Assembly: GCA_949152475.1 (NCBI GenBank)
Contig: OX424564.1
Span: 7,316,001 to 7,380,000, forward strand
Direction: 5' to 3'
Source: Terebella lapidaria
Lineage: Eukaryota > Annelida > Polychaeta > Terebellida > Terebellidae
DNA length: 64,000 nucleotides
Part shown: one piece after another, positions 10,564 through 43,404 of the stretch
Layout: every line of letters starts with the position of its first letter
Numbering within the stretch: position 1 is the first letter of the stretch
Program-made: the position numbers and the translations under genes
Notes under the pieces: generated by a model
Database searches by the model: none
Told to the model about the DNA's origin: nothing
The model's input: the letters and a program-made list of their open reading frames with translations, nothing else

Positions 10564-11065
10564 TAGTGGGGTGCCCAGAACCCCAGTCATTTCAAATTCA
10601 TGTAAAAGTTTGATTTTCAATACATTCTTGAAGATTAGTGCCTATAGAACAATTTTGGTCAGAGCGGCAATCTGGCAAACCAAATTTCGGCTGTTTGGGG
10701 TCCCTGGGGGCATCCCTACCCCCAACAGCCAAGGCAAAACATTAAAATTACACTAAATGTCAACTACATTATAGTAATTGAATATTTAATGGATGTTTTG
10801 AGTGTCTGGGTAATGTAAAAAGTTTATATAGAGCTGTTATGTGTGTTAACAAGTGAAATAAATGTCGGACTGACGATTTTTATGCAAATTAGTGCCGCCA
10901 TTACCGAAAAATCCAATTTCGGCTATATCTCGGTCAATATTGCAGATAGCTGAAATTTTAAGGCTTCTAGGCCCAGGTTTTGAGGGTCAAGGATCCAAAT
11001 GAAACCAATATGGAAGAGATTGAATGTGTTTGTACCTCAGAAACATGCAAATTAGTGCTGCCATT
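10564..11065. repeat. Left terminal inverted repeat, ~500 bp
   Basis: Pairs with 16257-16767 in reverse complement. Within the arm a block containing ATGCAAATTAGTGC and GCCATTACCGAAAAATCCA occurs twice (about 10884 and 11045), and the right arm has the same doubled structure. Arms of this length are unusual for simple cut-and-paste elements. Confidence 0.85.
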
Positions 11066-11275
11066 ACCGAAAAATCCATTTTCTATAAGAGTACAGTACT
11101 AACATACAAACAGAAAACAGGTATTATTTAAATGTTTTTTGTCAACAAACAACACCTCAATACATGTTGAATGGTGGAAAGAAACAACGTTTAAACGTTA
11201 ATTGTCAGAAATTTTATCTTAATTCTGTCATTCTACAATGTTTATTATACTACAATGTATGCCTTCATGGGACTT

Positions 11276-14260
11276 TCACTTGTCACATTTGCATTTACAC
11301 AGGCGTGTACATTTGAGGTTTGCTTTCGTACATTTACATGATGTACACACATGTAGACAGCTACATTTGATATCCAGATGGAAAACGTCCTTGACCACAG
11401 GCAGTGTGGTCCAAACTGGTTGGAGTTTGCCATCCGTCTTTGTCCAGCCGTGGTCTGCCGGGTTCATGTCAGCAATCATAGCCTGGTGAGCTGAAGTCCA
11501 GATGCTTGCTTGGAACACGCTTCTTTTGAGATGCTGGTCCAAGGCGTCTTTGGTTGGAGGTATTCTCTGGACGTCTCTTGTCTTCTGCGCGAAAACCTTC
11601 ATTCGGACCTGATCTACATCGGAATCCTCGGTTGACTCATTTGAGTACAGCTTACAAACAAACTGACTCGCCACTTGTTTCAGCTTTGGTGATGTTTGGA
11701 ATGGAGTATCAGTGACACTCGCGAAATTCTCCATGAGGGATGGAACATCATTCATCAGCTTGCAGCAGTAACGCTTCCCCTTAAATTTGAATGAAGATGT
11801 GCTGTCTGATCCAGTGAACGCATGGAAGAGGGCCATCGCTTTGCAGGTTGTCGTTCCTAGAGTTGCAACAGTGCTGTTCAGAGAGATCATTTTGGAGGTT
11901 GTGCCCACTTTGAATGAAATCCAAAGTTCTGCAGATGGATTCACTGCCAGGATATGGTGGAAATTACTCAGAATTTTTACGACAACATCTGTATCCCCAG
12001 TGTGAATCATCCCATGCGACGATACCTGCAGGGCATGAAGGACATGCACAACGACACGGGTGTCTGCCTCCTCGTGGTTGCATGTTCCCATTGGAGCACT
12101 GGACCCAACATTCAGGACCTGATCACCAGAAGTGATGTAGACATTCTTCCCCTCTGGAAATACTGCCTTGGCAAGTTTGCTGGACAGGAACGTGAAGAGC
12201 TCGGTCTTGTTGTCAGAATTTGCCAAAAACCTTTGCCAGTTTCCAGGAACTTTGGCATTGCCGGACACACGTTGTCGTGTTCCTGTCCCTCTTTTGTCTC
12301 TTGTGGCTCCCTTGATAGACAATGTACGGTACTGGTCCCAGACGATATCTACTCTTGTCGCTCTTTTCAAGTCATGAAGAACTCTTGGATAGAATACCTT
12401 TTCGAAGTAGTCATTGAAGGTCTTGCCTTGGACAGCTGTGCCAGGAAGTGAGTGTATCAGTACTCCACCATCAATAACGATGAACTCATACACATCTGGT
12501 GGTTGGAGTTCCTCGTCAGCTGAAAGGGTCGCACTCTCATTGAGTTCCATGATGTAGGTCAACAGACCTGACTTTGTACAAGCATTGAGAGTTCCGTTTG
12601 ACGATAACGCTGGAGGATATGTGGAAGATTCGTGCCGGAAAAATTCCGCCAAATTTCCGTCTCTACTATCCAGAACAACAAATGCTTGTCCATACAGTTC
12701 TGCATGGTCTTTGAAATGCTGCATTTTCAGCTTTACCGCCGTCTTCGGTGTCTTCTTCTCATGGAACAATAATAGATTGTTTCGTTTGATTGGTGTTGTC
12801 AGTAGTCTCTCTTTTGTTTCAAAGACAGTTTTCCTGAAGGAGTTGTACTGTTCTATTCCTGTAGACTCAAATGCACGGACAGATGCGGCAGCAGACTCAG
12901 AGATACACACCTTGTTGTCCAGTGTCACAAGGTCATCACTTCTCTCCTCGAAAGGATTTCCCTTGTCTAACAAGACATCGATGAGGTCCTTGACATGACA
13001 CCGAAATCTGTTCTGGAGGGCAAGGCCTTCTTCGTGATGGGGTAGCTGTTCGACTTCATCTTCCTCTTCGTAGGTTGGGCCTGTAAATTCACTGATTACA
13101 CGGCTAAGTTCAGGACCAGTCACAACCCAGTGTTCTAGCATGGTAGGGTGCTCCGTGAGGCCGATGATGCCTCCAGCTCCTTTCACCCTTTTGTTGGCCT
13201 GCTCATGGGCTTGGTCAATTGGTATTGATGAGAAACGGCGATTGCTTCGTGTAATTGTCCAGTTTCCATTTTCGAACTCTTCTTTGATGCTATCTGGCAG
13301 AACTTGCATGTCTCTGATGAGGACTGAAACCCAGCGTGCATAATTTTGGTGATCCAGTGCAAAGAACAATGGCACAAGCTTCTGTAGAGCAGCGATCATC
13401 AGTTCAAATTTCCGTTCTCGATGTGATCGGATGAAGAGAAATATGTCTTGCTCGTACTTGCGTACCAGTAGCCAGAACTCTATTGTTGGGTACTCCTTGG
13501 AAGCTCTCTGGATCCAGTCATCAATTTCCATTGTGGTCCCACTGTCTGTGTAAGCTCGCTTCAGAAGGCTATCGAGTACTACAAGAGTAACTTGATGAGC
13601 ATACCGTGTTCGCATTGGATCATATGCTTTGAGAAATGATGTTGCTCCGGCTTCTGTCTTGGCTAATCCAGCATCTTTGAGGACTTCAGGCCACCCAGAT
13701 CCGCGCAGGAGATCACCAATGGTGTTCCAAAGAGCCATTTCAATATGAAGTCCTCCAAGAATGACCACAAACTTGTCTTCTCCGAACACTTCGGGAAAGG
13801 TCCACTGCATCTTTTTGGCTATATCATACAGGGGTTGATCAACTGCCAGCAGGGGGATTTGTTGTGGATTCAGATATTCAGTGGTTTTTTTCACTAAGTC
13901 CATTCCATGTCGAATCATCTCAGGTGTAGCTGCTTTTTCATGGAAGAGAGGTAATAGGGCTTCAATGCAGTTTTCTGGGTGTCCTACAACATCACCTCTG
14001 GCAGCATGGAATGAAGACCACATGACAGGGACCTTTTCTGTCTCACATTCGACATCTAAGGCATCATGCACTGCTGCCATCCATGCCTGTTCATGCTCCT
14101 TTTCCCCCTCATATACACTCTTTGGTGATGGCTGTACCTCTTTGATTGGAGGCTGTGTGACCATATTCCGTCCTACGGGTGGAACGAATGTGTATGAACT
14201 GGGAAGAAGGGGTCCACTGCTCGTTGTGTCTGCTCGTCTCCTCCGTGAATCAATTTGCAA
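11276..14260 (-). CDS. Transposon protein: XPG/FEN1-like nuclease motifs with C-terminal CXC domain (994 aa)
   Basis: A long uninterrupted frame, read in the minus direction. Near residue 600 is VIDGGVLIHSLPG, followed by EEADTR at about 730-735, HTGDTDVVV at about 753-761 and HAFTGSD at about 813-819. The spacing and order match the EAEA / D-x-D / GCD acidic motifs of the XPG-I/FEN1 nuclease fold. Residues about 895-915 (RIPPTKDALDQHLKR) are another block I know from this family. The last ~30 residues form a tesmin/TSO1-like CXC cluster (KCSCLHVCTSCKCT...CKCKC). I recall many unnamed multi-copy proteins with this set in cnidarians, molluscs and fish. The true product probably starts upstream: family sequence continues in the same frame into 14285-14671 across one stop codon. 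Position inside a TIR element suggests a transposase or accessory nuclease. Confidence 0.8.
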   Translation of the reverse strand: MQIDSRRRRADTTSSGPLLPSSYTFVPPVGRNMVTQPPIKEVQPSPKSVYEGEKEHEQAWMAAVHDALDVECETEKVPVMWSSFHAARGDVVGHPENCIEALLPLFHEKAATPEMIRHGMDLVKKTTEYLNPQQIPLLAVDQPLYDIAKKMQWTFPEVFGEDKFVVILGGLHIEMALWNTIGDLLRGSGWPEVLKDAGLAKTEAGATSFLKAYDPMRTRYAHQVTLVVLDSLLKRAYTDSGTTMEIDDWIQRASKEYPTIEFWLLVRKYEQDIFLFIRSHRERKFELMIAALQKLVPLFFALDHQNYARWVSVLIRDMQVLPDSIKEEFENGNWTITRSNRRFSSIPIDQAHEQANKRVKGAGGIIGLTEHPTMLEHWVVTGPELSRVISEFTGPTYEEEDEVEQLPHHEEGLALQNRFRCHVKDLIDVLLDKGNPFEERSDDLVTLDNKVCISESAAASVRAFESTGIEQYNSFRKTVFETKERLLTTPIKRNNLLLFHEKKTPKTAVKLKMQHFKDHAELYGQAFVVLDSRDGNLAEFFRHESSTYPPALSSNGTLNACTKSGLLTYIMELNESATLSADEELQPPDVYEFIVIDGGVLIHSLPGTAVQGKTFNDYFEKVFYPRVLHDLKRATRVDIVWDQYRTLSIKGATRDKRGTGTRQRVSGNAKVPGNWQRFLANSDNKTELFTFLSSKLAKAVFPEGKNVYITSGDQVLNVGSSAPMGTCNHEEADTRVVVHVLHALQVSSHGMIHTGDTDVVVKILSNFHHILAVNPSAELWISFKVGTTSKMISLNSTVATLGTTTCKAMALFHAFTGSDSTSSFKFKGKRYCCKLMNDVPSLMENFASVTDTPFQTSPKLKQVASQFVCKLYSNESTEDSDVDQVRMKVFAQKTRDVQRIPPTKDALDQHLKRSVFQASIWTSAHQAMIADMNPADHGWTKTDGKLQPVWTTLPVVKDVFHLDIKCSCLHVCTSCKCTKANLKCTRLCKCKCDK

Positions 14261-14284
14261 AGGTTGTCTGGTCGATCCAGGATT

Positions 14285-15764
14285 CTATGATGTGGGGAAC
14301 TGAAATATTGAAATGCCTGTACCATGGAAAGATGTGGTCGCAGTACGGGATGTAGGATTGTGGTCCAGGTTGTCTAGAGCTGCAACAGTAAAGACGTGCT
14401 GACGCAAAGTTGACGGACATACAATGTCAGAGTTTTCTTTTACTTGGTCAGAGATAGCCTGTGCAAGTCTGACTTCAATGGTGAGGACTTTTTTGTAGGA
14501 CACACTGAGAGAATACTCATGTAGTAATTCAACTAACTTCTTGCTTCGTGTTTCAGAGTGGAATTTCAGCCCCAAGAATACTGCAAGTGGTGGTTCACAA
14601 CTCGTACTCGTCGAAAGTGATGTCATATTCAACATTGCTATCTGACTGACGGTGGACCTTTCTAGAATCATTTTGTGCTGGTGATGATTTGGGACCTGCT
14701 AGGAGTTGTCGAAAGAAATACTTCATACGTTGTGGTATGGATAATTCTTCACATCCAATGGGGAATGAACCCTTGAAGCTGAAGCCCTTTTCATGTTTTG
14801 AAACAGCTTTACGGAGGATAGATGCTGCCATCAACAATGTGTGGGATTCTGGGGTTTGGCATGCTTCTGATATGATCTTTCTGGCTGTACTCGAGCAAAT
14901 GATGAAAACTCGGTCTCGTACACCTTTCTCCTCTGTCATATCTGGGTTAGTGGGTGAGTATTTTTTCCTTCAGATGAGTGCGATTCACTGTCTTCTGGAT
15001 TCCATGTTGTTCCAATCTATCTGTCATCATATCGGTCAAATCTTGCATGGCAAAAACTTTACGGCCCCCATCAACTTCCTCTTTTATGAATTGGAGAAGT
15101 TCATTTTGAGCTGTCACCTCAAGGTCTGCGCTGGCATTTTCTGGTTGAACTTTTGAATCATACCTTCGGTTGAAGGTTATGTAACATTTGCGATGGTATT
15201 TAGCTTCAATGGCGACTAGATCGCCTTCTGCAAGACGTGCCACAATGTGATCGTCACCAAGAACCACTGCTTTATCATGAATGGTTTTTGTGAGAGTTTC
15301 TGGAACGAATGGTCCGCAGTACTCGTTTCATTCCCACAGAAGAGACACACGTCACGATTATGATCTTCGCCATCGATGCCACGCGGCTGCCGCTTGAGTC
15401 TTTTTGCTGAAGGACCTAATCCTTGAGAGTAACGTTTCTTTGCACGTTCAAGAGCTGACGCCCTATAAAGGTGACGGCAAGATTTGTGCCAACATGCACG
15501 GTTTTTACACATAGAGTGCTCATCAGGTAGCTCAACATCTGGATGAGGGGCAGCATCAGCATGTCTGAATGCATCCGCCAGGCGCAGGATCTCTGGATAT
15601 GCCTCGTCTCTGCGAGCAGACACTGGATTTTCAAGAGGACAAGTAAGGTCTTCTTCGGTGTGTGTCTGGCACAAAATGCATTTTTCCCAGTTTGGTTCTG
15701 CCATACTAGACATCTGTAAAGATAGCCAGATAAAAGCTAGGTCATGGGAACCCTGGGATGACAA
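14285..15764 (-). pseudogene. N-terminal part of the same transposon protein, spread over several frames
   Basis: Minus-strand stretches carry the front of the family. First comes a cysteine/histidine pattern (WEKCILCQ... CWHKSCRHLYRASALERAKKR, then CLFCGN) near 15330-15700. Next is VARLAEGDLVAIEAKYHRKC near 15150-15250, a metal-binding-type pattern. Then follow a helical region near 14600-14940 and the hallmark LDNLDHNPTSRTATTSFHGT near 14330. These lie in three different frames, and an in-frame TAG separates the last stretch from the 994-aa ORF. Either this copy has about three frame changes and a stop, or short introns remove some of them. I saw no convincing intron for the TAG. The zinc-type motifs probably bind the element ends or form a complex; that is inference. 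Confidence 0.7.
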
Positions 15765-16256
15765 GGAAAAATGCCAATAGAAAGGTCAGGCCAACTAACC
15801 ATCATGGAACATTGTTCGCTAATTAAATTGATAGACGCAATCTAGTAAATATGCCTACATGTCTTACTGTTTTGCATCAAATAGTTTCTTACCTCATTTT
15901 CTTACTTGTTGACTTGTGGCAAGTTATTGGAGTGGCCTGGATAGCATATATTGTCTGTTGCAATTTAATGGCACAAAACACAGATAACTGTGACTTTGTG
16001 AAATACAAAAAAAAAAACGCAATAAAATAAACCAGTAACCATGGAAACAAAAAAAACGCAATAAAACAAACCAGTAACCATGGAAAAATGTGGTAAGACA
16101 GTATAGCCATGGCAATCATGTACATGTTGTGGGAACAAGCCTATATTGGTATCAAGCCTATTGGCTATATAAGCCTATCAACCCTATTGGTAAAGCAATT
16201 ATATGGGCATACATGTACATGTATTGTAGCCTATATTATTACGATTTACTAGATGA

Positions 16257-16767
16257 TGGCGGCACCAATTTGCATATTCATATGGTACAAACACATGCAA
16301 TCTCTTCTTAAATGGTTTTATTTGGATCCTAGACCCTCAAAACCTGGGCCTGGAAGCCTTAAAATTTCAGCTATCTGCAACATTGACTGAGATATAGCCG
16401 GAATTGGATTTTTCGGTAATGGCGGCATTACTTTGCATAAATATCGTCAGTCTGACATTTATTTCACTTGTTAACACACATAACAGCTCTATATACACTT
16501 TCTACATTACCCAGACACTCAAAACATCCATTAAATATCCAATTACTATAATGTAGTTGACATTTTTTGTAATTTTAATGTTTTGCCTTGCCTGTTGGGG
16601 GTAGGGATGCCCCCAGGGACCCCGAACAGCCGAAATTTGGTTTGCCAGATTGCCACTCGGACCAAAATTGTTCTATAGGCACTAATCTTCAAGGAAGTAG
16701 TGAAAATCAAACTTTTACATGAATTTGAAATGACTGGGAAAATTAACCCATATGCGGCACCCCACTA
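16257..16767. repeat. Right terminal inverted repeat, ~510 bp
   Basis: Reverse complement of 10564-11065. It includes GGGGTAGGGATGCCCCCAGG and ends GGCACCCCACTA before the TAA duplication at 16768-16770. The arms differ by scattered substitutions and one short insertion near the outer end. Confidence 0.85.
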
Positions 16768-17560
16768 TAACGGATTTCTAGGTTGAATAGATTCACTGCT
16801 TTGGCTGAATGATTAGACATGTTAACGTGTATTCCAACAACATTAAACGCGGGAAACGCATCAATGGACCTTTTCACAGAGCCCTTCCTGGGACTATGAA
16901 TAATCGGTAATCTCCGTCTTTCAATGCACCAATCACTGGCTGGTCGTTGGTATCGCGAGATCAACTAAAACCACTGCGCGATTTTCCTGTCCAGTGGTTA
17001 CAGAAATGGCGGGAGTAATTGTCAGTCAAATGGACAAAAAGGCGCTGTAGTATATAGAATTGTGCATCTAAATGTGCATCGCACCGATTTCACAAAGATG
17101 AATCAACAAGAAACGAATGACTTGTTTTTCGAGCACTGTGGCATGTGTATGACTTCAGAAGATAAACCTCTCGCAAACCGAAACTCTGGGTTTTCCGAGA
17201 AAATAAGATTGTCCCCAAACCGAAAGTCTGGGTTTTTCCCCGGATAACAAACGGCCCAGCCGCGACAAAATAGTCAGACACAAGAAAATTATGAAAAAAA
17301 TTCCCTATCTGAAGCGTTTCTCTGCAAAAATGGCGGAAACTGCCTATTTGAAATGTTTTTGGTGATTGTAATCGCGTATTTAGAAAATTCGCGTCCGTTA
17401 GGAAAGCCGTTGGGATACGAATCTGTGGCCAGCACCTGATTGGCTGGATTATTGGTCGTTCGGCTATCATCGGAAACCTGTGCTGTGAAAAGGTCCATTA
17501 CAGATACTTGAATGAGTTCGGGGAGGTTTGTGAATTTATCACATCTATAACTAATAGTTA
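16768..17560. repeat. Dispersed repeat unit, right half, itself split by a MITE
   Basis: TAACGGATTTCTAGG onwards continues the unit seen intact at 8418-8600. Homology stops near 16860, where another inverted-repeat element begins, and resumes near 17500 with ACTTGAATGAGTTCGGGGAGGTTTGTG. This copy has therefore received two separate insertions. Confidence 0.7.
16863..17499. mobile_element. Non-autonomous TIR element, AATGGACCTTTTCACAG ends
   Basis: AATGGACCTTTTCACAG at 16863 is mirrored by CTGTGAAAAGGTCCATT ending at 17499, an exact 17-bp inverted repeat. No transposase frame is present. The corresponding place in the 8.1-8.6 kb copy has no such sequence, which supports an insertion, although flank divergence hides the exact target duplication. 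Confidence 0.65.
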
Positions 17561-18712
17561 TATAGATTTTATGTCGAAATCCTGATTTTATGCCATTGGA
17601 CACATTCAAATTTGTGGGCAAAAAATGTGGTTCAAAATTGCCTCACTACTATTTTTTTTCGGGGGAGGGGGGGGGGGGGGGGGGCGGGGGGTCAAAAATG
17701 GAATGCAACGAGATATGAAGCATATACATGGAGTCCCTTCTTATTACCAATGAGAGCGGTTTCAGAATGAACAATGTTAAGAGCAAGATGCTTATTTCAT
17801 TATCTTCTGGCAGTTGTTTATAAGGACTTGGCATTGTTCGCTCGGATACTTTATACTTGGGTATTAGTTTCATGTTTATTGCTCTTAGTGATTCTATGTC
17901 ATTGTCAGGTGGCAGTTTTTGTATATTTTCTTTATTTTGATTTTTTGTATATGTGCATGCACCTAGTTCTGTAGTTGAATGGGGAATTATCTATGGATAG
18001 TTGGATTTCAGCAGCGATGAATTCAGATCTATTTTGATCATTCAACATCAAAGTTTTAAGACAAGCACATATTTCTTAATACAACTAACAGTACAGTAGT
18101 TCGTATTTCATGTACTTCATTAGGCTAATTCAAATATACGATAAGGCATATATAAATCAAAGTCTAGAAGACAGCCTTGTTCTAAGAGTGTGGTTTTGAA
18201 ATGAACCACACCATAAGATATCACCCCGAGGGTGGGAGGGCCCCCCCTCCCACCCTCGGCGTGATATCTGTCCATGTTTTATGAACATTACTAAGACAGC
18301 AGTCCATGTTTTATGAACATTACTAAGACGATCAAGTATCAACAAAAACAATAACACTTGCAACATGAACATATACCATACCAGCAGATTGTTTTAGTTT
18401 TATATATCCCGACTTCATCCATCGCAGTAGTCCGCCTATATACGTATGAGCATTTTCGAGAGAGTTGAAGATGTATTTTTTTTGCCAAACTAGGCGAGCA
18501 ATCTAACTACCGAATACCAGATCAAATGAAATAAATATTACGTTTACTCTCAACGTGTTCTTTTTAAAACAAAATAATCGATCCCTTGTTGCTGAGATCA
18601 AGTCTGTTTAGAGGACACAATATTGACTTTTACTTTAAATATATGAACAACCATTCAAATATGTTCTATTCAATAAGATACTTTCATAAAAATGAGGCCA
18701 AGGGTCAAAGAT
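17561..18712. other. Unassigned DNA with a G-run
   Basis: No gene is recognised. A run of about 18 G lies near 17668-17685. Near 17838-17870 a short stretch (TTGTTCGCTCGGATACTTTA) resembles the 3' terminal region of the reverse-transcriptase element at 27.66 and 49.6 kb. Near 18280-18330 a 30-bp phrase beginning CATGTTTTATGAACATTACT is doubled. Confidence 0.35.
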
Positions 18713-24984: not shown

Positions 24985-25880
24985 ACTAATCAATAATTAA
25001 TTTTTCTCTAAAAAGGGACAACGTCGGTACCCCTATATTGTAGTTAAATATAATACCGCTTATTTTGTTAAAGACGACTCTGATGCCCCATACAAATATA
25101 CTGAAATAGATGTGGTAAATATGGTTAATTTTCTGATTGATAATATGTTTGTGGAATTTGGTGGTCGAATATTTCAACAAACTATTGGTATTCACATGGG
25201 TACAAACTGTGCACGATTATTGGCAGACCTGTTTTTATACTCATATGAATCAGATTTTATCCAACATTTACAACGAGGAGGTTCTAAGAAACTAACATGT
25301 AATTTTAATTTCACTTTCCGATACATAGATGATGTATTGTCGCTAAATAATCCCAAGTTTGGTGATTATTTGGATGTCATATATCCTAAGGAACTTGAAA
25401 TCGAGGATACTACAGACTGCGCTAATTTTTCCAACTATCTAGACCTGAGGTTAGAGATTGATAATGATTCTAACCTGTCAACTAGATTATATGACAAACG
25501 TGATGATTTCAATTTTTCCATAGTCAATTTCCCTTTTCTAAGCAGCAACATTCCTATGTCACCGGCATATGGTGTGTTTGTTTCTCAACTTATACGCTAT
25601 TCCAGAGCTAGTTGCAAATATGAAGACTTTGTCTATCGAAGTGCCCAGCTAAATTGCCAGTCTCTAAATTGCTGCGACAAGGATATGTTATACCAAGACT
25701 CATAGCTGCGTTTAAGAAATTCTATGGACGTCATCATGATCTGGTTGATAAATACACCAATCCATGTCTGCCATGCAACTAGATCTATTTTCATGTTAAT
25801 TTTGGGGAATTCATGACGGGTGCCACTAATGGGGTAGGAAATGTTCACTCTTTCCGGAACACCTGATTTCACCTCCTAAT
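24985..25880 (+). mobile_element. Reverse-transcriptase element (non-LTR or Penelope-like), 5'-truncated
   Basis: From about 25008 the plus strand reads KKGQRRYPYIVVKYN, then FQQTIGIHMGTNCARLLADL (RT domain 4-like), FRYIDDVLSLNN (the catalytic YIDD box) and LYDKRDDFNFSIVNFP. The C-terminal block AAFKKFYGRHHDLVDKY follows in another frame, ending LPCN near 25780. I know this RT type as a multi-copy family in many animals but am not certain of its order; there is no integrase or LTR. The 3' untranslated part continues to 25880, is split by the foldback element, and resumes at 27542-27703. A second, 5'-truncated 3' end lies at about 49553-49840 on the other strand, which fits target-primed insertion. 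Confidence 0.75.
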
Positions 25881-28101: not shown

Positions 28102-30051
28102 ATGGCTAAGAACTCATCCGATTCATCCACATCAACTGTACAGATGAGGGATCATTCAGGCGGAGGTCAAGGTAACATATTTTTGTTCCACGATAAGTTG
28201 CTTATTACCTCAACATCTCAATACTTTTCTCACGAATGTATCACCAATACATCAATATTCATTGATGTCAATAGAGATTTGTCCATTCTGCAATCACAGT
28301 CAATACTACATCAGTGCACAATATATTTCCCCATGTAAACTGTGTACAATATGATTATTGTTTGTGTATCTCGTTGATACGAGTGAAAATCTGAAATGGG
28401 TAAAAATGAAGCCCAACCAAGCAATCATATCCAGAGCCAAACTAGCGTCAGCAGGGGTGGGCAGTTGCTGATATAGGGTTGTTTCTACTGTGAATGGAAT
28501 TTGTATCTAACTGCCAAACAACCGATTGCTGTTTTTGAAACCCTAAAACAAATCCCGCGAAATAAATGTATGACAGAAAACCTGATCACAAGCCAAAAGG
28601 CCTTGGGCTGGTGGTTTTCTCAGTGACAGATTTCACGTTAACCAGCAGTGACATCCGCTGAATGGTACAAATGTAGTCATTGACTTATGTGCAATAGAAA
28701 TTGACATATATATCTATGCATGCATGTTTTTGGGGAAACGTAACGCTCGCTCTTCGTTACTTCAGAAAAGACAATCGAAGTCCTGGACAAAGAGAGTGAC
28801 ACACCTGAAGCAATACAGAAGAAATTGACTGACCGCCTCAGTGAGATCCGATGTACGACCTACTTGACTGTGGAGAACATGTGTAACATCATAGACGAGA
28901 GTCTGATGAACTTCATGGCATCTGATGTGAACATCGCAGTGTGCGGCCGCAGTGGAGCGGGCAAGTCCAGTCTGATCAACACCATTCTTAACCTGCGACC
29001 TAGGGCGGAAGGTGCAGCACCCGTTGGTATAACAGAGTGTACAGATAAACTTGCAGGGTATAAACACCCAGATTTACCAAGGGTAGTTGTCTGGGACCTC
29101 CCTGGGGTGGGAACGAAGCGATTCCCGAGAGCAACCTACCTAGATAAGATAGGGTTTTCCAGTTTTGATGCATTCATTATTGTGTGTAGCAGTCGTATTT
29201 TTGAGGAAGATACATGGTTGGCTAACGAAGCTCAAAGAGTTAACAAGCCATTTTATTTTGTAAGATCTAAGCTAGACCAAGAAGTGTATAATCCACAAAA
29301 TTCGGATATGAGTGAAGAAGTCGCTATCAAACAAATACGAAAAGACGCTGAAAAAAACTTAGCCGAAGCTGGAATTCAGCATCGGAAGATATACTTAGTG
29401 GGTGGGGCAATATATTTGCAGTCTGAGTGGGACTTTCCGGTGTTGATGCAAGAACTTGCGGAAAACACACCAAAGAAAAACGCTACAGCCATGATGATGG
29501 CTATGGTTTCTTGTTCGAAAGAAATCATAACCAAGAAAAGAGAAGAATTCCAGAAACGCATTGCAGGGATTGCACACAAAGCAATAGAGTCAGTTGACGA
29601 TTTCGGAAAGATAGTCGAAAACGAAATGTCGTTATATATCCAGCGATTTGGGATTGGCGATGATAATCTCAGAGTGTGGAAGGTTGAGGTCAGCAAACTG
29701 GAACCAAAATTCCAGGAAATCAAATCTGGAATTTCAGAAATTGTAGATCATGATCGAGCAGTACAATCCACAGGGGGGCAGTTTATGCAGAGAATGTCCT
29801 GCATGAACCTTTTTCAGGAGAGGAATTGGGCGAAGAAAACCGCCAGACAAAACTCTGATTCTAAACTGGAAAATGAGGAGCTCTTCAAAGACATTTCTGA
29901 CATGTTAGAATCCGTTCTTGATGTGTGTGAATCCTTGGCTGTACGTGTGTTAGAAGAAAGGACCAAATCGTCCAACTTCAACAAAATGGCAAAAATTGAG
30001 CCGTGTGTTGCTGGAGCCATCAAAAGACTGACAACCGGAGAAACACAATAA
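28102..30051 (+). CDS. IRG-family (immunity-related / interferon-inducible-like) GTPase, 2 exons
   Basis: Exon 1 28102-28171 (ATG, MAKNSSDSSTST) and exon 2 28766-30051 join through a GT/AG intron to a 451-aa protein. G1 P-loop GRSGAGKSS lies at about 84-92, G2-like GITECT about 20 residues later, G3 DLPGVG at about 134-139, and a G4-like SKLD at about 191-194. The C-terminal half is helical (REEFQKRIAGIAHK, DISDMLESVLD, LAVRVLEER). In vertebrates IRG proteins bind membranes of intracellular pathogen vacuoles; many invertebrates have related GTPases of unknown role. P-loop lysine and serine are present, so GTP binding is likely. No transmembrane segment is seen. The frame is complete and undamaged. 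The intron carries a diverged copy of dispersed repeat R. Confidence 0.88.
28400..28690 (+). repeat. Dispersed repeat family R, diverged copy in the IRG intron
   Basis: AAGCCCAACCAA, TGTTTCTACTGT, CCTGATCACAAGCC and ACCAGCAGTGACA occur in the same order as in 56050-56360. Identity is lower than between the other copies, so it is older or belongs to another subfamily. Confidence 0.55.
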
Positions 30052-33289: not shown

Positions 33290-36200
33290 ACATTGTATGT
33301 CTTTACATCAGCTCAAATTGTTCACTGGAGCGTTACACTCCTGCCTATATATATGTCCACTGGTCATTCATTAAACTCTCTTTCTGTATGCTCACTGACC
33401 ATGCGTCTTGTCGTTATTACACACTGCACGACATAACAAATGTGGCGACGAGGATGTCGAACTTACAGCAAATACAACCATTTCTGCCAGAGCCAGGCGA
33501 ACTTACAGTGCCTTGGAAGCAATGGAAATCAAGTTTTGAAAATTATTTGTTAGCGACGGGCGGTACAGATTATGCAGCTGAAAGAAAGAAGGCGCTCTTG
33601 CTTCATTGTCTCGGTATTGAGGGCCAGAGAATTTTAGCGACGTTGCCGGAACGTGACTCGCCGCCGGTGGATGCAACTGCCTACGACAACGCACTGCACG
33701 TGCTAGAGCAACATTTTCTGCCGCAAGTGAATGTTGCTGCAGAACGCTACCGGTTCCGACAAAGGGCACAGAACTCTGGTGAGTCCATCGACCAGTATGT
33801 GACAGCGTTGCGTTACCTCAGTGCTAATTGTGATTTCGGCGACAAACTGGACGAAATGATTCGAGACCAAATCATTGAGAAGACATCAATTTCCCGTGTA
33901 CGTGAGCGTCTGTTGATGGAGACAGGTCTCACCTTAACCAAGACTCTTGACATTGCTAAGCGTATTGAAGAGGCGCTAAAAGAATCCAGAGCTATCTGTA
34001 ACGCTCAGTCTTCCTCCAATGCCCCGACGGTGAACCGTGTCTCATCTTACCACGACAAGTCTAACCCGCACGCTAGACGTGGTGCTGCAAGTGCAGGTTT
34101 CAAGAGTTCCAGGGGTGCACGCAGGGGTCAGTGTTACCGCTGTGGTTCTAGTGACCACTACGCCGACGACGCATCCTGTGAGGCACGCGACAAGCGCTGT
34201 GGGAAGTGTTCCAGACGTGGACATTTTGCTCGAGTTTGCTGCAGTCGCGGTAATGGTTCCAACGCGAGGGGTGGACGACGGGACGTTCACCACGTGACTA
34301 CTTCGCGCGATACTGCCGACGTCGTAACTGATGACGACTACTGTCTCGACGTGTTCATGACCGGGTCCACGCAGGCGAGAACCAAGCCTGTGTACGTCAC
34401 CATTCAAGTCAACGGCGTGGATCTCAGGGTGATGGTCGACACCGGGTCGGGCGCTACGCTTCTCTCGCAGACAGTTTTCAACCGGCACTTCCTCCCTGAG
34501 GCGCTGAGTCTTCCGCCGTCTGACGTTAAGCTGTCGTCTTACACGGAGCATCCCATCGACGTGATCGGGTGTTTGAAGTGCAATGTTGCGTATAATGAGC
34601 GATCTACTGTTGCAAATATGTATGTTGTGAAAGGTGCTACGTGTATTCTAGGTAGAGATCTGGTAAACGCGCTCAAAATGCAAATTGACGGAACTACGAT
34701 GTCGTGTAATACAGTGGAGAATGATTGTAATGTGATCGAGCAGAATGATATAAATGTACCAGATATTGCTAAGCCGTATGTGAATCTGTTCGTTGAAGAC
34801 CCTGAATTGTCGTGTATCAATAGGGGTGGGGGATAACTAAAAAATGAAACAATATCAAGCAAAACCCCCTTCTAAATGATGGTATGGTATAACTACAATA
34901 CTTCAATGCCACTTACCTGCTGATTCTTGGTTGTTAATCCACATGTACATGCATGGTAAAAATTTTGGTGATTTGGCCATTTTCACGGGTTTACAGCAAA
35001 GCATCTAATATTTATTTGTTTGGTGTGTTCACTGAAAATATGTCACGTTTTTTACCTGGTTTGTTCCAATGCTTAGCACGTGATGTGTGTCTCAATCCTG
35101 TTCATTAGTTCTCGACTCCACTATCTGAAAATGGCTCAGCCTCAGCCTCAGTCGCAAGAACGGTCAAAAGGTCCGAGTGTCAGAAAATTATAAATGACAC
35201 TGTTTATACCTACCGATGTAAACTTCCAAATGGAACACTTCCAACAGAGAAGAGCAATATGTGTTGTATGGTGTACTTGTCGAGAACTGATATGGCAGGT
35301 AAAACTCGTACTCTTCAAGTGTGATACCAAACACCAAACAATCCGCAAGACTAAACTCAAAATCCATCAATGAAACCAAGGTTGTACACTGACATTTCTG
35401 CATTATGTAGACAATTGGAGAGACACATATTTAGAAACCTAGTATATTTGCATATTGTGCACATGTGCCCTCTACAGTGATTTCAAGGGACTCTACCAAT
35501 GAAGAAAAATAGATAAAGTGAAAATGTCAGCATACAACTAGTGAATGAAAAGATATCTTTTTGACATATCGACAACTATCAACAAAGCGAGGAGAGACTC
35601 GAAGAACAATATTGGGTGAAAATGACAGTATGAATATGCCTTCCTGAAATACCAGAAAGAAGCGAAAATTGGTTATTGTACTTCAATTGTGGACAAGAAA
35701 TGGGGGAAAACAACCCAGAGGAGGTAGAGAGACTAGCTCTTTTATGAGAAAATGAAGAAAGAGCACGAAACTTCTCAGCAAATAGACGGAATATCTTCTG
35801 AAGTGGTGGAGGGCGACAGTACTAGCGAAGATGAGTACAACAGACAATCAGTGTGACACACGGCCGTCAAGCTGATATGAATCACCTATGTGAGAGAAGA
35901 ATTATCAGATACGATGTCAGAGGAGTTCCGTCACATACGGATAAGCATCAAGTGAGTTGAACCTAAATTCTACAACAAAATTCTACAAACTTATCGGCTC
36001 AAACCATCGCTCAAAGAAGTATGCTGTTTCTGTTGTTATATGATGACTGAACGGCAGGTGGTACGAATCAACTATGAGGTCAAGATTATGTGGCGATTTT
36101 GCCCAAAGATCGCGGCAGGTGATTCTTTCAAATACGCTTGTTTCTGGCCTTTGTTTTTGACGCTTCTCTTCGAAGCACGCGCTGCTTAGCAACGCCCTCC

Positions 36201-39200
36201 AACCCTCTCGCCCAGTATGCTGAAACAATGGTCTTACGTCACTTCCCTCGTTTCTCGTGCTTAGGGACTATAAATATTCTGGAGCCGTTTTGTTCAGTGA
36301 AGTTGTCTCGGAGCTGAACAAGGCGAGAGAATGACGGAGGGCTCGGCCATGAGCACTAAGTCCGCTCTATGGCTAAGGCCCTCGTGGGCCCCTGGGGACA
36401 ATTTCAATAGGGGTCCAGGTGGGACAGATCTTGATGACTCGGGGGCTCACGCCCTCTGATTCACCGGTCTCCCACCTGGGATGGTGCGACACAGGTTCTG
36501 GCGGTCCGTTGGGCTGTCCGGGGTTCCATCCCCTGCAGCGGACCACGGCGAGCTGGCCTTACAGTTAATACCACGGTGATGATCCTGTATCTGAGTGGTG
36601 TCCGCATGTCTGGGCTCGCTGGGCGGGCTGCTACCTGGTTAACGTTCTGGTGATAAAGTAGGCACTGCACCCGCAGTGACCCTCGGTGAGCGGACTATCC
36701 ACGAGGATCCGAGGATAGTGGGCGTGCGTCCGCCGTGACCCGTGGTGAGAGGACTATCCTCGAGGATCCCGGATAGTGGACGACGTTAAGAACTTTACAA
36801 TGATGACTAGTTGAGGTGGATTTTGTTGTACTCAAAGGGTATAAGATGCTCTCCGAAACAACATATATCCAAAGGAGAAAGGAACTCGACTGTACCTCGA
36901 AGTATGATATGCTCGCGTTAGTTGCTTTTCTCTGGCCAAGTCTGGTGATATATTCAGACACAAGCATGCTTATAAAAACCTGTGTTTCAAGGAATACAGC
37001 ATTAACCTGAAAATATACTTCGGGAAGGTGGCAACAAATGCTTCTTGCTGCGCTGGACATTTGGTTCCATAGTGTAAAGGACTTGCATTACAGTGCAATT
37101 GCATACCTATTCTCCATAACTTACCTGTAAACAATGAAATACATTGTTATATATTATGGAAAATGCATTCTGGCTATCATACACAATAGAAGCATGATGA
37201 ACAATGAATGTTGATTGATAAATAATGACATAAAACTACTTGTACCGAATACAGTATTTTGGCATTTTCATGCATTTTGCTCGATTTCGGTACTCACCAT
37301 CACACCACATGTACATGGGGGTTACCTTGCTAATAAAACAAAATGCTTTCGGAATATGTTTTATGGTATTATGGACCATCTTTTTGAAGGGGGTTTTCGA
37401 TTTTGTTAGATTATCCCCCACCCCTAGTATCAAAGGTTTTGCTCACCGGGTTAAGGTGAATGAAAATGTGCTTCCCATGCAGCAAAAGTTACGTAGATTG
37501 CCGTTTTCAGTTCGGGACCAAGTTTCAGCCGAGTTACAAAGGCTAGAAAGTATGGGAGTCATTGAGCGTATCGACTCTTCCGAATGGGTATCGCCTGTGG
37601 TTGTGTCATGGAAAAAGTCAGGGAAACTCAAATTGTGTGTAGATTTACGCCAAGCAAGCAGAGCAGTTATTCCTGATCGGTTTCCTTTGCCCAATATCAA
37701 TGAGTTGTTGAGTGAGCTAAGGAATTCTAGTGTATTTTCTCAGTTAGATTTGGCGTCAGCTTACCATCAGTTGGCTTTACATCAGGATTCTAGGTACCTG
37801 ACTGCGTTTATCACACACGAGGGACTATACCAGTATAAACGTGTATGTTTCGGACTTTCTTCAGCGCCTAGCGCATTTCAGAAGGTTATGAGTTCGATTT
37901 GTTCTGGTTTGAAAGGAGTTCAGTGTTATCTTGACGACGTTGTTATAAGTGGTAGGTCTCAGGCCGAACATGACAGGAATCTGAAGGCGGTGGTAACTAG
38001 GTTTCAGGCCCATGGAGTCAAATTGAATCACGACAAGTGTAAATTTAGCCAGTCGACCCTTCATGTACTAGGTCATACTATCAGTGATCATGGTATCGGG
38101 GCTGATGAGAAGCTCCAGGCAATTGTCGATGCATCGGTTCCGAAAGATGAGAAGGCGTTGAAGTCTCTCTTAGGCCTTGCTGGGTATTTCTCCAAGTATA
38201 TTCGTAATTATGCCGACCTTGTAGAGCCCCTCAGAGCGTTGATACGGAAAGGTTCTACATTTCAATGGTCCGGTGAGGCTCAGGCGAGTTTTGAACGGTT
38301 GAAACAGGCCCTAAAAAATGCTCCTACATTAGCTATGTTTGATCCGGATTGTGAGCTAATGGTTACTTGTGATGCATCTGCGTACGGCTTGGGCGCCGTT
38401 TTGAGTCAGTGTAAGAATGGTAAGGAAGAAATTGTTGTTTGTGCTTCACGCACGTTGTCCGACGCTGAAACTCGCTATTCTGTCGGTGAGAAAGAAGCAC
38501 TCGCTTGTGTATGGGCGTGTGAAAAGTGGAACACTTATCTCTGGGGTCGCAAGTTTGTATTGCGTACTGACCGGGAAAAACTAACGAAAAACAGTTGATG
38601 CGCATATCTCGATGGGCCGCACGATTGATGAAGTATGATTATGTGGCACAGTACAAACGTGGTGAAGAAAATGTTGTAGCCGATTGTTTGTCTAGGTTGC
38701 CAACTGAAGCGGATAGCATCGACTATGATGAAGATGATGAAGTTATATGTAGTATTGTTGTAAACTCTATGAATGCCAGTGTTTCGCGTGATGTATTGTT
38801 CCAAGCGATCCGGAACGATGATGTTCTTTGTCGGATCAAAATTGCTGTACAAAATGGGTGGTGTAATGTTAAAATCGATGAGGATATGAGGCCATACTTT
38901 TTGGTGAGAGATGCTTTGTGCGTTTGTGATGATGTAATCATGAAGGGTGACAAAATTGTGGTTCCGAGAGAACTCGCATCTAAGTTTGTACATTTAGCAC
39001 ACGAGTCGCACCAAGGCATGACTCGCACTAAGCAGCGATTACGAGAGTTGTATTGGTGGCCCAAAATGGATGTCAAAGTCGAAAATGTTGTTCGGTCTTG
39101 CAATGTATGTCAGAGGAATGACAAAACTGGTAGAACGCATTTTGCTCCACTAAAACCTATACAGTTCCCGGATAGGCCATGGAGTAAACTAGCTATTGAC

Positions 39201-39734
39201 ATCATTGGTCCGTTTGAGAGGGCACCACTAAGTTGTAAATACGCTGTAACACTAGTAGACTACTATAGCAAGTGGCCTGAGGTTGGATTTATGTCCACCA
39301 TAACCTCGTTGTCTGTAATCACATTTCTCAGGCGTGTATTTTGTCGTGAAGGGTTACCTGATGAAATTGTCACCGACAATGGCCTGCAGTTCAATCCAGA
39401 GAGTTCGAGGAGTACCTCAGTGACCGCTGTATAAAACACACTTGCTCTACAGTATACTATCCACAGTCTAATGGTGCCGTAGAAAGGTTCAATCGTGTAA
39501 TTAAAAACACTGTACAAAATGCACTATTCACAGATAAGCCATGGAAACGTTATGTGGAATCATTTCTCGGTATTTATCGAGCAACTCCCCATGCGGTGAA
39601 TCGCCGTCATTACTTCTACATGGTAGAAAGATGAAAACTAAATTGAGTGTGTCATGTGGTGGAGCGGTGTCTGTCAATGATAAGGTCGATTAGAAGGTCA
39701 AACGGAGAGTAGACGACAAGCAGACGAAGTATAA
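33290..39734 (+). mobile_element. Gypsy-family LTR retrotransposon, broken fossil
   Basis: A Ty3/Gypsy element. A 5' LTR-like end is followed near 33440 by a TGGCGACGAGG primer-site-like motif. Then come a gag-like region with two CCHC-type zinc knuckles (33450-34300), an aspartic protease region (VDTGSGATLL, near 34440), and after an insertion a reverse transcriptase (YLDDVVISG), RNase H (VTCDASAYGLGAVLS) and integrase with an HHCC-type zinc region and catalytic core (37440-39430). A matching 3' LTR was not found; the end is probably lost or lies beyond the next insertion at 39735. It is broken: one large insertion in its body, another element at its 3' side, and about two or three coding interruptions. 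Protein parts are well preserved, so the age looks moderate. Confidence 0.85.
34821..37426. mobile_element. hAT-like non-autonomous element inside the Gypsy fossil
   Basis: TAGGGGTGGGGGATAA at 34821 is mirrored by TTATCCCCCACCCCTA ending 37426, with GTATCAA outside both ends (34814-34820, 37427-37433). Ends of the TAGGGGTG type and a 7-8-bp duplication suggest hAT. The 2.6-kb interior has no recognised transposase. It includes a GC-rich block of about 500 bp (36290-36790), ending in two tandem ~55-bp units that contain self-complementary GGACTATCC / GGATAGT stretches. Confidence 0.75.
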
Positions 39735-40301
39735 TAGTCCAGCAGAACTGCAGAAAAGCATGTTTTGGCGTCATTATGAACTTTTTTTGCTGATTCATCA
39801 TCTCTGAGCATTCCTGAGTCAGAATCAGCCGGGTGCCACCTTGGCACCCTTGGGGAATTTTTTTCAGAGCCGAAAAACAAAATGGCTGCCACTGAATACC
39901 GCTAAATTCACTTCTTTGACAATATCTCCGCTTCTAAGCCACTTAGAAGCACAAACTTGGTGTCTACTACTAGGTTTTCATGGTCAAGGAATCCATTTAT
40001 AATAATGCCAAACTTGTATATATAACAGCTCATCAGATTTCCGAGATTAACCACCCAGATATTTGAAAAATCTGGTTTTGGTCAAGTTTTTAAATGCTCA
40101 TGCAATTGCCACTCAGTACAACATTTATTGCTGTCCACTACTATGTATTCAGGCTCAATAAATCAATGACAATAAATGTGACAATATGATTTCACTATTG
40201 AATTAGGTGTTACATGTGGCAATATTACGAGTCATTGGCAATTCTTCGTAACTTGAACCGACATCATCATCATCTTCCTGAACAGGTTCCTCCTTGGTAT
40301 G

Positions 40302-40700
40302 TTAATTGCAACAATCTGGTCCAGAATAACAGGCACAGAACTTTGAACAAGACATCTGTGGCACTACACAGCCACATCTCGCAGTGGAGCATGGCCGGCT
40401 GGTGGAGCATCCACATTCGACTGTTTGTAGAATGGCGACAGGTACAGTGTATACACCAGTTGGAAGCGGGGTTGGACGTATGTTGTGCCGTATCTGTATT
40501 CCGACCATATCGGGTCGGGTCAAAGTGTGAAGGATCTGATTGCAGCGGATTTATACATAAGAATTGTAATTGGGTACGATGTAGATGCTGAACAAAGTCA
40601 TCTTTTGATAGGGGCAATACCTTCAGTTTCGAGGCTAATGTGTTCTTCACAGGATGGTGGTGAACAAACATATCATCTCTTAGTTTGAAACCATGATACG
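40302..40700 (-). pseudogene. CXC-domain tail of the XPG/CXC transposon protein
   Basis: The minus strand near 40560-40640 reads KVLPLSKDDFVQHLHRTQLQ, equivalent to IPPTKDALDQHLKR in the 994-aa ORF. Downstream, in another frame, is a cysteine cluster CGCSTSRPCSTARCGC followed by MSCSKFCACYS (about 40302-40400), which fits a tesmin/TSO1-like CXC motif. The body of the protein (nuclease motifs) was not found here. The shared end of the protein and the shared terminus rules tie this element to the one at 10.6-16.8 kb. Confidence 0.7.
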
Positions 40701-40924
40701 CAGCAAAAGAAGCAGTCGTTTCTGGCATCATGTTTGTTTCATACGCAGCAAAAGATGCTTCTGGTTGACCAAGTGAGATTAGGTGATTTCCCCTATTGGG
40801 GGTCTTCAATGCTGTGGCCTTTCCAAAGCCAAACAGATACTGTAGTACACACTGTTTATACACTCACCTCCCCATTGAGACATGTACACATGGCATATAT
40901 TTTGCTATGCTTTGGTGTGTTTGA

Positions 40925-42250
40925 GCAGTTTGACGAATGCTGGAGGAAAGCTAATGTGGTCCCAGTGTGGATGTGATAAAGAAATAGCGGCACTACCGTG
41001 ATTTGCAAAGTGATGGAACATATTCTGGTGAGCAACATGATCACGATGATGGACCATTTTGACGAACACAATATCCTAGTCGACTGCCAACACAGATTCC
41101 GAGCTAAACGTCCATATGAATCCCAACTCATCACGACCTGACTTCCCCAAACAGATTCAAACAAGTACATATGGCCACACTAGACTTCAGCAAGACACAT
41201 TATCGGGTCCTACACTCCAGACTAAAAAGCAGAACTGGACTATTATGGAATCAGAAACAAACATCTTCTATGGATTGGTTCATTTAAGGATCAGAGAATC
41301 CAAAAGATCCACGTGGATGGAAATCTGGCCTCGGAATGTCTAGTACCTGCTGTTTCTACTCTTCATAGATGACATCACGATGAATTTAACATCAACCACC
41401 AGGCTGCGTGCATATATTTGTTTGATCTTTCATGAAATCTCGTCAACTGAGAATCACATTCTGCTTCATAATGACATTGACAGACTGGTAGCCTGAAATC
41501 ACAAAAGGAAAATGGATTTCAATACTGAAAACTGTTACATTGTAGGAATTTCACTGGCCACAAAACCTACTGCTACCTACATGTATCAATATTCCATAGG
41601 ACACAGGACAGTACAGGATGATAACCCATAAACGACGGCGACTCGGGCACTATGCTTCCCTTGTAGAAACCATATTCGATGTGACAAGTCATCCAAGCCA
41701 AAGGGGAAATTTCGCTCTCATCTGACCTCATTTAATATTGCTGTGTGGTCCGGTGCCCACATCAGGCCAAGCTATAAAACCAGTTTGGAAAGGTTCAGTG
41801 ATCTGCGGCCAGATTTCTAGCAAACGAACCCTATGACAATCGTCATTCAGACAGCATTACAGCTATTCCTAATGACCTCGGATGGATATCACTCATGGAG
41901 TGGAGAAGGAAAATGACGCTGACCCGTTTCTATAAGATGACCAATGGATTGACCATCATCCTTCTGAGCTGTCTCAGACAAGGACCAGGCGACCAAACGA
42001 TCAGCGGTTCGCACAATATCAAACAACTGTCCACATGTACCAGTCATTTATTCCGGCACAACACCTGATCGAAATGGCCTTCCCCAGAGTGTGATCAGCT
42101 CGCCCTCCTTGGTCGTCTTCAAGACATGACTGGTGGCTATTCGACTGAAGTAGATGAACGGCTTCAATCGAGCCTTGTTGTAGGTTACTCTGTGAACCAC
42201 TTTTCGCAGGAATAGTATCGTGTATAGACTGAGCTGATGTTTTTTTATAA
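40925..42250 (+). mobile_element. LINE reverse-transcriptase fragment (CR1/Jockey-like), decayed
   Basis: Plus-strand traces in changing frames read ECWRKANVVPVW, ICKVMEHILVSNMIT, NILVDCQHRFRAKRPYESQL, YYGIRNKHLLWIGSF, IHVDGNLASEC, and near the end NGLPQSVISSPSLVVFKT. These are the ordered blocks of LINE RT and its C terminus. Many stops and shifts are present, so it is old. No endonuclease part remains. It sits inside the 39735-43401 transposon and may be an insertion there. Confidence 0.7.
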
Positions 42251-42569
42251 CATTTTTTAACGTCTGGCAAGATTTTGTCATTTGCTTTGTGTTGGTCTGT
42301 ATCAATCAAAGATTACGTAAACCTCACAGCACCCCAAACGGTATATTATGCTGGCCATACTGTGCAATTTTGTATCTTCATATCTGTTTGTGAATGCCTC
42401 ACCATTGAAGTCACATATGGGAGGACATCGCCTCAACTAACTTGGTTAACTAGGAACAGAGGAAACAATGACTGCCTTTATTGGGAAATGTTATTGTTCC
42501 AAACGGAGACGTGATAAATGTATGTTTACCGACATTTGTACAGAAGATGAAGATGGCAAACTCGAAGAT

Positions 42570-42860
42570 CACATCAGCTGCAAAACTGAAGGTATTGCCC
42601 CATCACAAAATGCCTTTGCTCAGCATGTACACCATGCTCGACTGCAATTTTCGTGGAAATCCGCTGCTCAACAACAGATGTGCTGTTAGCTGCAAAACTG
42701 AAGGTATTGCCCCATCACAAGATGCCTTTGCTCAGCATGTACACCATGCTCGAATGCAATTTTCGTGGAAATCCGCTGCTCAACAACAGATCTGCTGTTC
42801 AAAGTTCCGTGGCTGTATTTTAAGCCAAGATTGTTGCAACGAATATACAAAGAAGAACCT
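42570..42860 (+). repeat. Tandem ~112-bp duplication coding for a CXC-family block
   Basis: Two nearly identical units begin AGCTGCAAAACTGAAGGTAT (about 42578 and 42690) and read KTEGIAPSQDAFAQHVHHAR. This corresponds to the LPLSKDDFVQHLHR block on the opposite strand near 40600. So the C-terminal part of the transposon protein exists in both orientations within one element, close to each inverted arm. Confidence 0.6.
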
Positions 42861-43404
42861 GTTCAGGAAGGCGATAATGATGACTAATCAAGTTATGATC
42901 TGTAATTGACCCACAATGTTGTCACATGTAACAGTTGATGAGCTAAAATCATACAGCTTTTGTTGGGTCAGTACTATAGATTCACTAACCCAGTAGTGAA
43001 CACCAAGATTGTTGATTAAAGTGGAAAATGCTTATGACTCGAACAGAACCAAATTTTTTAAAGAATCGGGTTCGTCAATCTCGAAAACCGGATAAGCTGT
43101 TATATATACAAGTTTGGCAGTATTATATTTGGATTCCTTGACCATGAAAACCTAGTAGTAGACACCAAGTTTGTGCTTCTAAGTGGCCTAGAAGCGGAGA
43201 TATTGTCGAAGAAGTAAATTTAGCAGTATTCAGTGGCAGCCATTTTGTTTTTCGACTCTGAAAAAAATTCCCCAAGGGTGCCAAGGTGGCACCCGGCTGA
43301 TTCTGACTCAGGAATGCTCCGAGATGATGAATCAACAAAAAAAGTTCATAATGACGCCAAAACATGCTTCACAAGAAAATAGTCATTTGGCAACTGGACT
43401 ATAA

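What the first reader, a model, noticed from the sequence alone, without database searches (positions are those of the whole stretch)
10564..43401. Two TAGT-ended, TAA-flanked transposons with huge inverted arms share a CXC-type protein
The elements at 10564-16767 and 39735-43401 have unrelated arm sequences, yet both begin TAGT, end ACTA, have TAA outside each end and inverted arms of ~505 and ~370 bp, and both carry the KDAL/DDF...QH plus CXC protein end. This links a large unnamed invertebrate protein family to a DNA transposon. From memory, Academ (3-4-bp duplication, XPG-like nuclease) is the nearest named group; KDZ elements also carry CXC-type modules.
Basis: partly seen in the sequence, partly recalled or inferred. 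Interest (0 to 1): 0.8.

Follow-up and report, generated by a model that had tools for sequence, protein, structure and literature searches.

The report
Academ-type DNA transposons with constant ends
Two jumping-DNA elements in this genome belong to one group of transposons that most likely cuts and pastes itself with a combined transposase-nuclease protein, and although their flanking arms look different, the outermost letters are the same and most relatives share a hidden signal inside the arms.

Summary
A (10564-16767) and B (39735-43401) are TAGT...ACTA elements with long inverted arms and 3-bp target duplications. The host genome (761 Mb, unnamed) shows what they are. A is a broken copy of an autonomous element; three sister copies keep a 1506-aa open frame: Cys/His region, candidate DDE core, FEN/EXO1/XPG-like nuclease, Cys-rich (CXC) tail. 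B is a non-autonomous relative carrying frame-shifted tail remnants.
Of 21 copies with both ends read, 20 have matching 3-bp duplications, in many different triplets, so TAA is not a fixed target. Three A-group insertions and one B copy have related empty sites with a single triplet. TAGT/ACTA also stands at the breakpoints of families whose proteins are only 30-39% identical to A's. The arms are not wholly unrelated: a 32-base subterminal box was found in 7 of 11 ends.
Nuclease plus 3-bp duplication fits AcademX, the nuclease lineage of Academ. KDZ and CACTA fail on duplication length or termini. The core weakly matches Pfam DUF6589, which elsewhere in this genome sits beside a helicase, as in AcademH. 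No named Academ sequence was available to align, so membership rests on architecture. Verdict: new member of a known kind, with a useful end code.

The parts
10564..16767 (-). Element A: 6204-bp TIR transposon, broken copy of an autonomous family (protein on minus strand)
10561..10563 (.). 3-bp target-site duplication of A, left (TAA)
16768..16770 (.). 3-bp target-site duplication of A, right (TAA)
10564..11138 (+). left inverted arm of A, begins TAGTGGGGTGCC
   Evidence: 561 aligned bases with the right arm, 90.6% identical
16192..16767 (-). right inverted arm of A, ends GGCACCCCACTA
10963..10994 (+). subterminal box 3 of A, candidate protein-binding site
   Evidence: A not used to build the matrix, 0 of 1000 shuffles reach its score
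15216..15764 (-). N-terminal Cys/His part of A's protein in its own frame (frame broken between this and the 994-aa ORF)
   Evidence: 16 stops when 14261-15764 is read in this frame; same residues open in L047
11276..14260 (-). 994-aa ORF: candidate DDE core (second D and E), nuclease, CXC tail
13838..13840 (-). candidate catalytic Asp of DQPLY (residue 141; D626 of L047), invariant in alignment A1
   Evidence: catalytic role inferred
13202..13204 (-). candidate catalytic Glu of HEQxNK (residue 353; E838 of L047), invariant in alignment A1
   Evidence: catalytic role inferred
11759..12478 (-). FEN/EXO1/XPG-like nuclease region, VIDGG to GKRY
11279..11371 (-). Cys-rich CXC tail
39735..43401 (.). 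Element B: 3667-bp non-autonomous relative, ends TAGTCCAG...CTGGACTA
39732..39734 (.). 3-bp target-site duplication of B, left (TAA)
43402..43404 (.). 3-bp target-site duplication of B, right (TAA)
39756..40485 (+). left inverted arm of B, includes tail remnants
   Evidence: 692 aligned bases with the right arm, 83.2%
42645..43369 (-). right inverted arm of B, with similar tail remnants in mirror orientation
39878..39891 (+). box 1 of B (CAAAATGGCTGCCA), 144 nt from the end
   Evidence: leave-one-out: 0 of 1000 shuffles
39960..39991 (+). box 3 of B (GTGTCTACTACTAGGTTTTCATGGTCAAGGAA)
   Evidence: leave-one-out: 0 of 1000 shuffles
40320..40475 (-). CXC tail remnant of B, in a different frame from the 197-aa ORF
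   Evidence: hmmsearch E=4.3e-4; best shuffled decoy 0.25
40270..40863 (-). 197-aa ORF with the DDF..QH motif; decayed, most listed copies have stops

Best explanation
A is a decayed copy of an autonomous cut-and-paste DNA transposon of the Academ type, nuclease lineage (AcademX). B is a non-autonomous relative that looks built from two opposed 3' ends. SHOWN: the ends are TAGT/ACTA; each insertion duplicates 3 bp of varied sequence; related empty sites carry one copy of the triplet; three sister copies keep a 1506-aa open frame; candidate D, D, E residues of a DDE core and the acidic residues of a FEN/EXO1-type nuclease are conserved across families; one subterminal box is shared by 7 of 11 ends examined. 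INFERRED: the Cys/His region and/or the CXC tail bind subterminal sites in both arms and pair the ends; the DDE core cuts next to TAGT and joins the ends to the target with a 3-bp stagger; the built-in flap/structure-specific nuclease trims or opens the other strand during excision or repair, in place of host FEN1/EXO1. B is moved in trans by a related protein.
For: 3-bp duplications in 20 of 21 copies with both ends read: A family 4 of 5, second family 2 of 2, third family 4 of 4, B 10 of 10. Empty sites for 3 of 10 insertions queried (33 places at 99%, 8 at 99%, 7 at 82% identity); one place of each was aligned and has a single triplet and no gap at the junction. One B copy sits inside another B end, whose uninterrupted form has one AAA. 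TAGT/ACTA at, or within 3 bases of, copy-to-copy breakpoints in L017/18/19/37, L022/L029 and L024/L033, and within 7 bases in the ~30%-identity C11:39.70M family. 1506-aa open frames in three A-family copies (one read in full). Invariant D448, D451, D626, E838 in 10 aligned ORFs. Nuclease positions kept in 30 of 30 loci, several being near-identical or overlapping copies (second E and D of HEEAD, both D of DxD, D of TG[SC]D); first E of HEEAD 29 of 30; D of VIDGG 24 of 24 and of VWD 22 of 24 with a residue. hhalign to four archaeal FEN1 plus EXO1: P=0.0017, all 60 column-shuffled controls lower. DUF6589 matches the core in some members and elsewhere lies beside a DEAD helicase, as in AcademH. 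AcademX: nuclease and 3-4 bp duplications (PMC10045372, passage).
Against: No named Academ transposase was aligned: none is held, and the AcademH paper is not in the library. The nuclease match is weak: P=0.06 with FEN1 alone, the significant local match covers mainly the TG[SC]D-GK part, and there is no PDB or Pfam XPG hit. DUF6589 is weak in A itself (E=0.0028), and the A-group profile against the strong DUF6589 ORF is not significant (hhalign P=0.48; hmmsearch no better than shuffles). The single-sequence fold failed (pLDDT 33.6). One A-family copy (C13:6.9M) has a decayed right end and no matching triplet. The L065 helicase/DUF6589 pair has no clear duplication. L030 has no second copy to confirm its end. 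Box 3 is missing or weak in 4 of 11 ends.
Confidence: 0.85

Rival explanations
1. A distinct superfamily outside Academ that converged on nuclease plus 3-bp duplication, defined by TAGT ends.
For: Direct similarity to the strong DUF6589 (AcademH-like) ORF is not significant. No named Academ sequence was compared. No paper held has both 'Academ' and 'TAGT' as whole words.
Against: Two long-ORF members exceed Pfam's DUF6589 cut-off (30.1 and 29.3 vs 27 bits); L036 matches profile positions 137-401 at E=3.7e-4. Nuclease and duplication length fit AcademX.
Confidence: 0.12
2. An unrelated MITE or fold-back element captured a host-derived ORF.
For: B-like elements are abundant, and none of B's listed ORF relatives is long.
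Against: In all five A-family copies the ORF sits between the arms; six ORF families, A's included, have TAGT/ACTA ends by duplication or breakpoint; B itself holds a remnant of the family tail.
Confidence: 0.02
3. EnSpm/CACTA element (3-bp duplications, CACTA letters at one end).
For: 3-bp duplications; the last letters of A are CACTA.
Against: The orientation is reversed (5'-TAGT...ACTA-3', fixed by the duplications and empty sites); that group mostly has 5'-CA..TG-3' termini (PMC12730594, passage); no CACTA-type Pfam match.
Confidence: 0.01
4. KDZ (Kyakuja-Dileera-Zisupton) element.
Against: KDZ duplications are 7-8 bp (PMC12730594, passages), here 3 bp; no KDZ or CxC Pfam model matched.
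Confidence: 0.01

Closest known systems
AcademX (nuclease lineage of the Academ superfamily)
   Same: nuclease with a candidate DDE core, 3-bp duplication within the stated 3-4 bp, terminal inverted repeats; a curated bivalve set of 100 Academ averages 5565 bp (PMC10294476, passages) against 6.2 kb here
   Different: no reference sequence aligned here; TAGT ends and shared subterminal boxes were not met in the passages read, and no held paper has both 'Academ' and 'TAGT'
AcademH / DUF6589
   Same: the core domain has weak DUF6589 similarity; in this genome the strongest DUF6589 ORF sits beside a DEAD helicase
   Different: no helicase match in A; 3-bp instead of 9-10 bp duplications
FEN1/EXO1/XPG nucleases
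   Same: order of the acidic motifs and the GxGK turn
   Different: fused to a candidate transposase; not found by Pfam or PDB sequence search
KDZ transposons
   Same: Cys-rich module (recalled)
   Different: 7-8 bp duplications

Membership tests
AcademX | 3-4 bp target-site duplication (PMC10045372 passage) | tested here: met
   20 of 21 copies, 3 bp; empty sites
AcademX | encodes a nuclease (XPG-like: recalled) | tested here: met
   motif conservation and profile match P=0.0017 to FEN1+EXO1; weak or absent in other searches
AcademX | DDD/E transposase | tested here: inconclusive
   invariant D448/D451, D626, E838; no confident fold
AcademX | terminal inverted repeats | tested here: met
AcademX | sequence similarity to a named Academ transposase | not testable with these tools
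   no Repbase sequence held; AcademH paper not held
AcademH | helicase | tested here: not met
   no helicase model matched the ORFs scanned
AcademH | 9-10 bp duplication | tested here: not met
   3 bp
KDZ | 7-8 bp duplication | tested here: not met
   3 bp
EnSpm/CACTA | 5'-CA..TG-3' termini | tested here: not met
   TAGT..ACTA at the duplication boundary

The most novel reading that the evidence does not exclude
TAGT/ACTA plus subterminal boxes (CAARATGGCYGCC near position 124-146 in six families, then a GTGTCTATACCTATGTTTTNATGGTCAAGGAA-like box, which A also has) is the ancestral end-recognition code of a whole nuclease-transposase lineage. It would unite families whose proteins are only 30-39% identical and whose arms look unrelated, and would let non-autonomous relatives be assigned without coding sequence. 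DUF6589, a Pfam domain of unknown function, would be the transposase core shared by the helicase and nuclease branches.
Probability: 0.4. Interest if true: 0.55.

Novelty: new member of a known kind. Interest (0 to 1): 0.4.

Why it matters
It ties a protein group that Pfam does not cover, apart from weak DUF6589 matches, to mobile DNA, so such proteins need not be taken for host genes. It gives a simple end rule (TAGT, any 3-bp duplication, subterminal boxes) for finding and classifying autonomous and non-autonomous copies. A transposase fused to its own flap-type nuclease also raises a testable question: does the element carry its own strand-processing or repair enzyme?

Tried and rejected
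KDZ, CACTA, AcademH and MITE capture were considered and rejected (see rivals). TAA as a fixed target was rejected by the triplet list. Relatives in viral contigs and genome contigs: none found by the patterns used. PDB profile search: no relevant hit. The first AlphaFold job, single sequence, had pLDDT 33.6 and was not used for a fold search; the second job was not used. DUF6589-ORF comparison: not significant. B's autonomous parent: among the rows listed for its 197-aa ORF (158 matches, list cut) no frame exceeds 280 aa; L021 shares B's end letters and 42 nt at 83% and is only candidate kin. Paper searches: DUF6589, 0 papers; Academ with TAGT, 0.

Rows dropped or not resolved: of four second-family copies, both ends were read in two; C1:52.49M gave no exact TAGTGGGG/CCCCACTA in the end pieces fetched, and C2:39.36M had one end read. 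L003 (C11:7.65M) shows one arm only and is not counted. The ten B copies are taken from the best-scoring of at least 40. The ends of L021, L025, L030 and L032 are motif matches, not breakpoints. Seven of ten joined-flank queries showed no junction-spanning place in the listed rows, and the list was cut. Box 3 was absent in f3, L030 and L070 and weak in L022 (15 of 1000 shuffles). Box 1 passed in 6 of 11 ends, all six being ends it was picked from; none of the five others passed, A included; L021 has it reversed, about 150 nt from the end.
Full report
Observation. A (10564-16767, 6204 bp) begins TAGTGGGGTGCC and ends GGCACCCCACTA; B (39735-43401, 3667 bp) begins TAGTCCAG and ends CTGGACTA; each has TAA directly outside both ends. 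The arms are longer than reported: 561 aligned bases at 90.6% for A and 692 at 83.2% for B.

Copies. The 994-aa ORF has 52 matches, a lower bound. Four other copies at 93-99% protein identity form A's family; three keep a 1506-aa open frame, one of them read in full as L047. The window copy is broken: its N-terminal part lies in another frame, and 14261-15764 read in that frame holds 16 stops.

Target duplications. A family: TAA, TGT, ATA, ATC, and one copy with a decayed right end and no match. Second family (66-68% protein identity): GTC, TAT. Third family (35-39%): CAG, TAT, AAG, TAC. B: TAA, TTT, AAA, AAA, AAA, TAA, TCA, CAA, TTC, TGT. In all, 20 of 21. The duplication is three bases of free sequence with a lean to A/T. 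The flanks of ten insertions, joined with one triplet, were searched against the genome: 33 places match one junction at 99%, 8 match a second at 99%, and 7 match a third at 82%, all across the junction. One place of each was aligned: single triplet, no gap at the junction, gaps elsewhere in two. One B copy (C11:36.87M) sits inside another B end; the window's own B end shows that stretch uninterrupted with one AAA. These are related empty sites and show insertion with a 3-bp duplication.

Ends of the wider group. Where two or more copies exist, similarity stops at, or within 3 bases of, TAGT/ACTA: L017/18/19/37 (TAGTAGAGC), L022/L029 (TAGTGCAGC), L024/L033 (TAGTGGGGC). A member only ~30% identical (C11:39.70M) ends in ...GTACTA at L070 position 1191; two other copies stop matching 2 and 7 bases beyond it, and most listed copies of a flanking repeat begin at the next base. 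L021, L025, L030 and L032 carry the motif near the ORF but were not confirmed by breakpoints. Most of the 52 ORF matches were not checked for ends.

The protein. Ten aligned ORFs share an N-terminal Cys/His region, DNxD (D448, D451), DQPLY (D626) and HEQxNK (E838), these acidic residues being invariant, then a nuclease-like region and a Cys-rich tail. The three sites stand in the order expected of a DDE core; that they are catalytic is inference. In the nuclease region the acidic positions are kept in nearly all of 30 loci, some of which are near-identical or overlapping copies. Profile comparison with archaeal FEN1 plus EXO1 gives P=0.0017, above all 60 column-shuffled controls, mainly through the TG[SC]D-GK part; with FEN1 alone it gave P=0.06. 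PDB and Pfam sequence searches did not find it.

Link to Academ. The Pfam family that most members match is DUF6589 (5 of 10 at E up to 0.1; PilJ 2, TSX 1 and DUF1400 1, all weak). It is weak in A (E=0.0028), better in L025 and L036 (1.4e-4, 3.7e-4), and above the curated cut-off in two long-ORF members. The strongest DUF6589 ORF in the genome (1.9e-44) lies next to a DEAD-helicase ORF (1.5e-19), the AcademH combination. A direct comparison between that ORF and the A-group profile was not significant. PMC10045372 (passage seen) states that AcademH makes 9-10 bp and AcademX 3-4 bp duplications, related to helicase and nuclease respectively. The elements here, nuclease and 3 bp, fit AcademX. No named Academ sequence was at hand, so this is membership by architecture.

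Element B. Its two arms each have 40 listed places at 96-100% identity, a capped list, and its ORF remnant 158 matches, most listed rows with stops and none in a frame over 280 aa. Similar tail remnants lie in both arms in mirror orientation, so B looks like two 3' ends joined head to head. Its CXC tail is recovered in a shifted frame.

Shared arm signals. Local alignment shows common boxes in arms of different families. In leave-one-out scoring, box 3 (32 bases) passes 0 of 1000 shuffles in 7 of 11 ends: the six it was picked from and A, which was not used to build it; f3, L022, L030 and L070 do not pass. Box 1 (CAARATGGCYGCCR) passes in the six ends it was picked from, at positions 124-146, and in none of the other five, A included. 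It resembles a YY1-type site (recalled, not tested). Because the boxes were picked from these same ends, leave-one-out reduces but does not remove selection.

Verdict. An AcademX-type transposon and its non-autonomous kin: a new member of a known kind. The new part is the constant end, the shared box, and the in-genome tie of an unmodelled protein group to them.

Noticed in passing
window 57585-63152 (-): 1855-aa open frame of collagen repeats ([13 protein letters not shown]...), Pfam Collagen E=1.9e-237.
   Followed up: partly
window 28825-30051 (+): 408-aa ORF like an interferon-inducible GTPase (IIGP), E=6.4e-56.
   Followed up: partly
window 33388-39434 (+): Pieces of an LTR-type retroelement (weak gag/protease-like, RT/RNase H, integrase) in separate frames, just left of element B.
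   Followed up: partly
window 25112-25705 (+): 197-aa ORF with a reverse-transcriptase-like RYIDDV motif, no Pfam match. The A-family copy at C1:4.53M is inserted in a related sequence (RYINDVLSLNNPK...).
   Followed up: partly
L065 (C17:25858500-25866500): DUF6589 ORF beside an opposite-strand DEAD helicase, with a 31-nt inverted pair 812-842/7591-7621: AcademH-like, duplication not clear.
   Followed up: partly
G000 C7, C14, C15, C9, C4, C12, C1, C16, C2, C247: Further opposite-strand pairs, about 2.6-9.5 kb apart, share 72-85% identity with the inner part of A's arm (query 281-513): perhaps more families of this group.
   Followed up: no
C11:36874602-36878526: A B-like element nested in the end of another B-like element.
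   Followed up: partly
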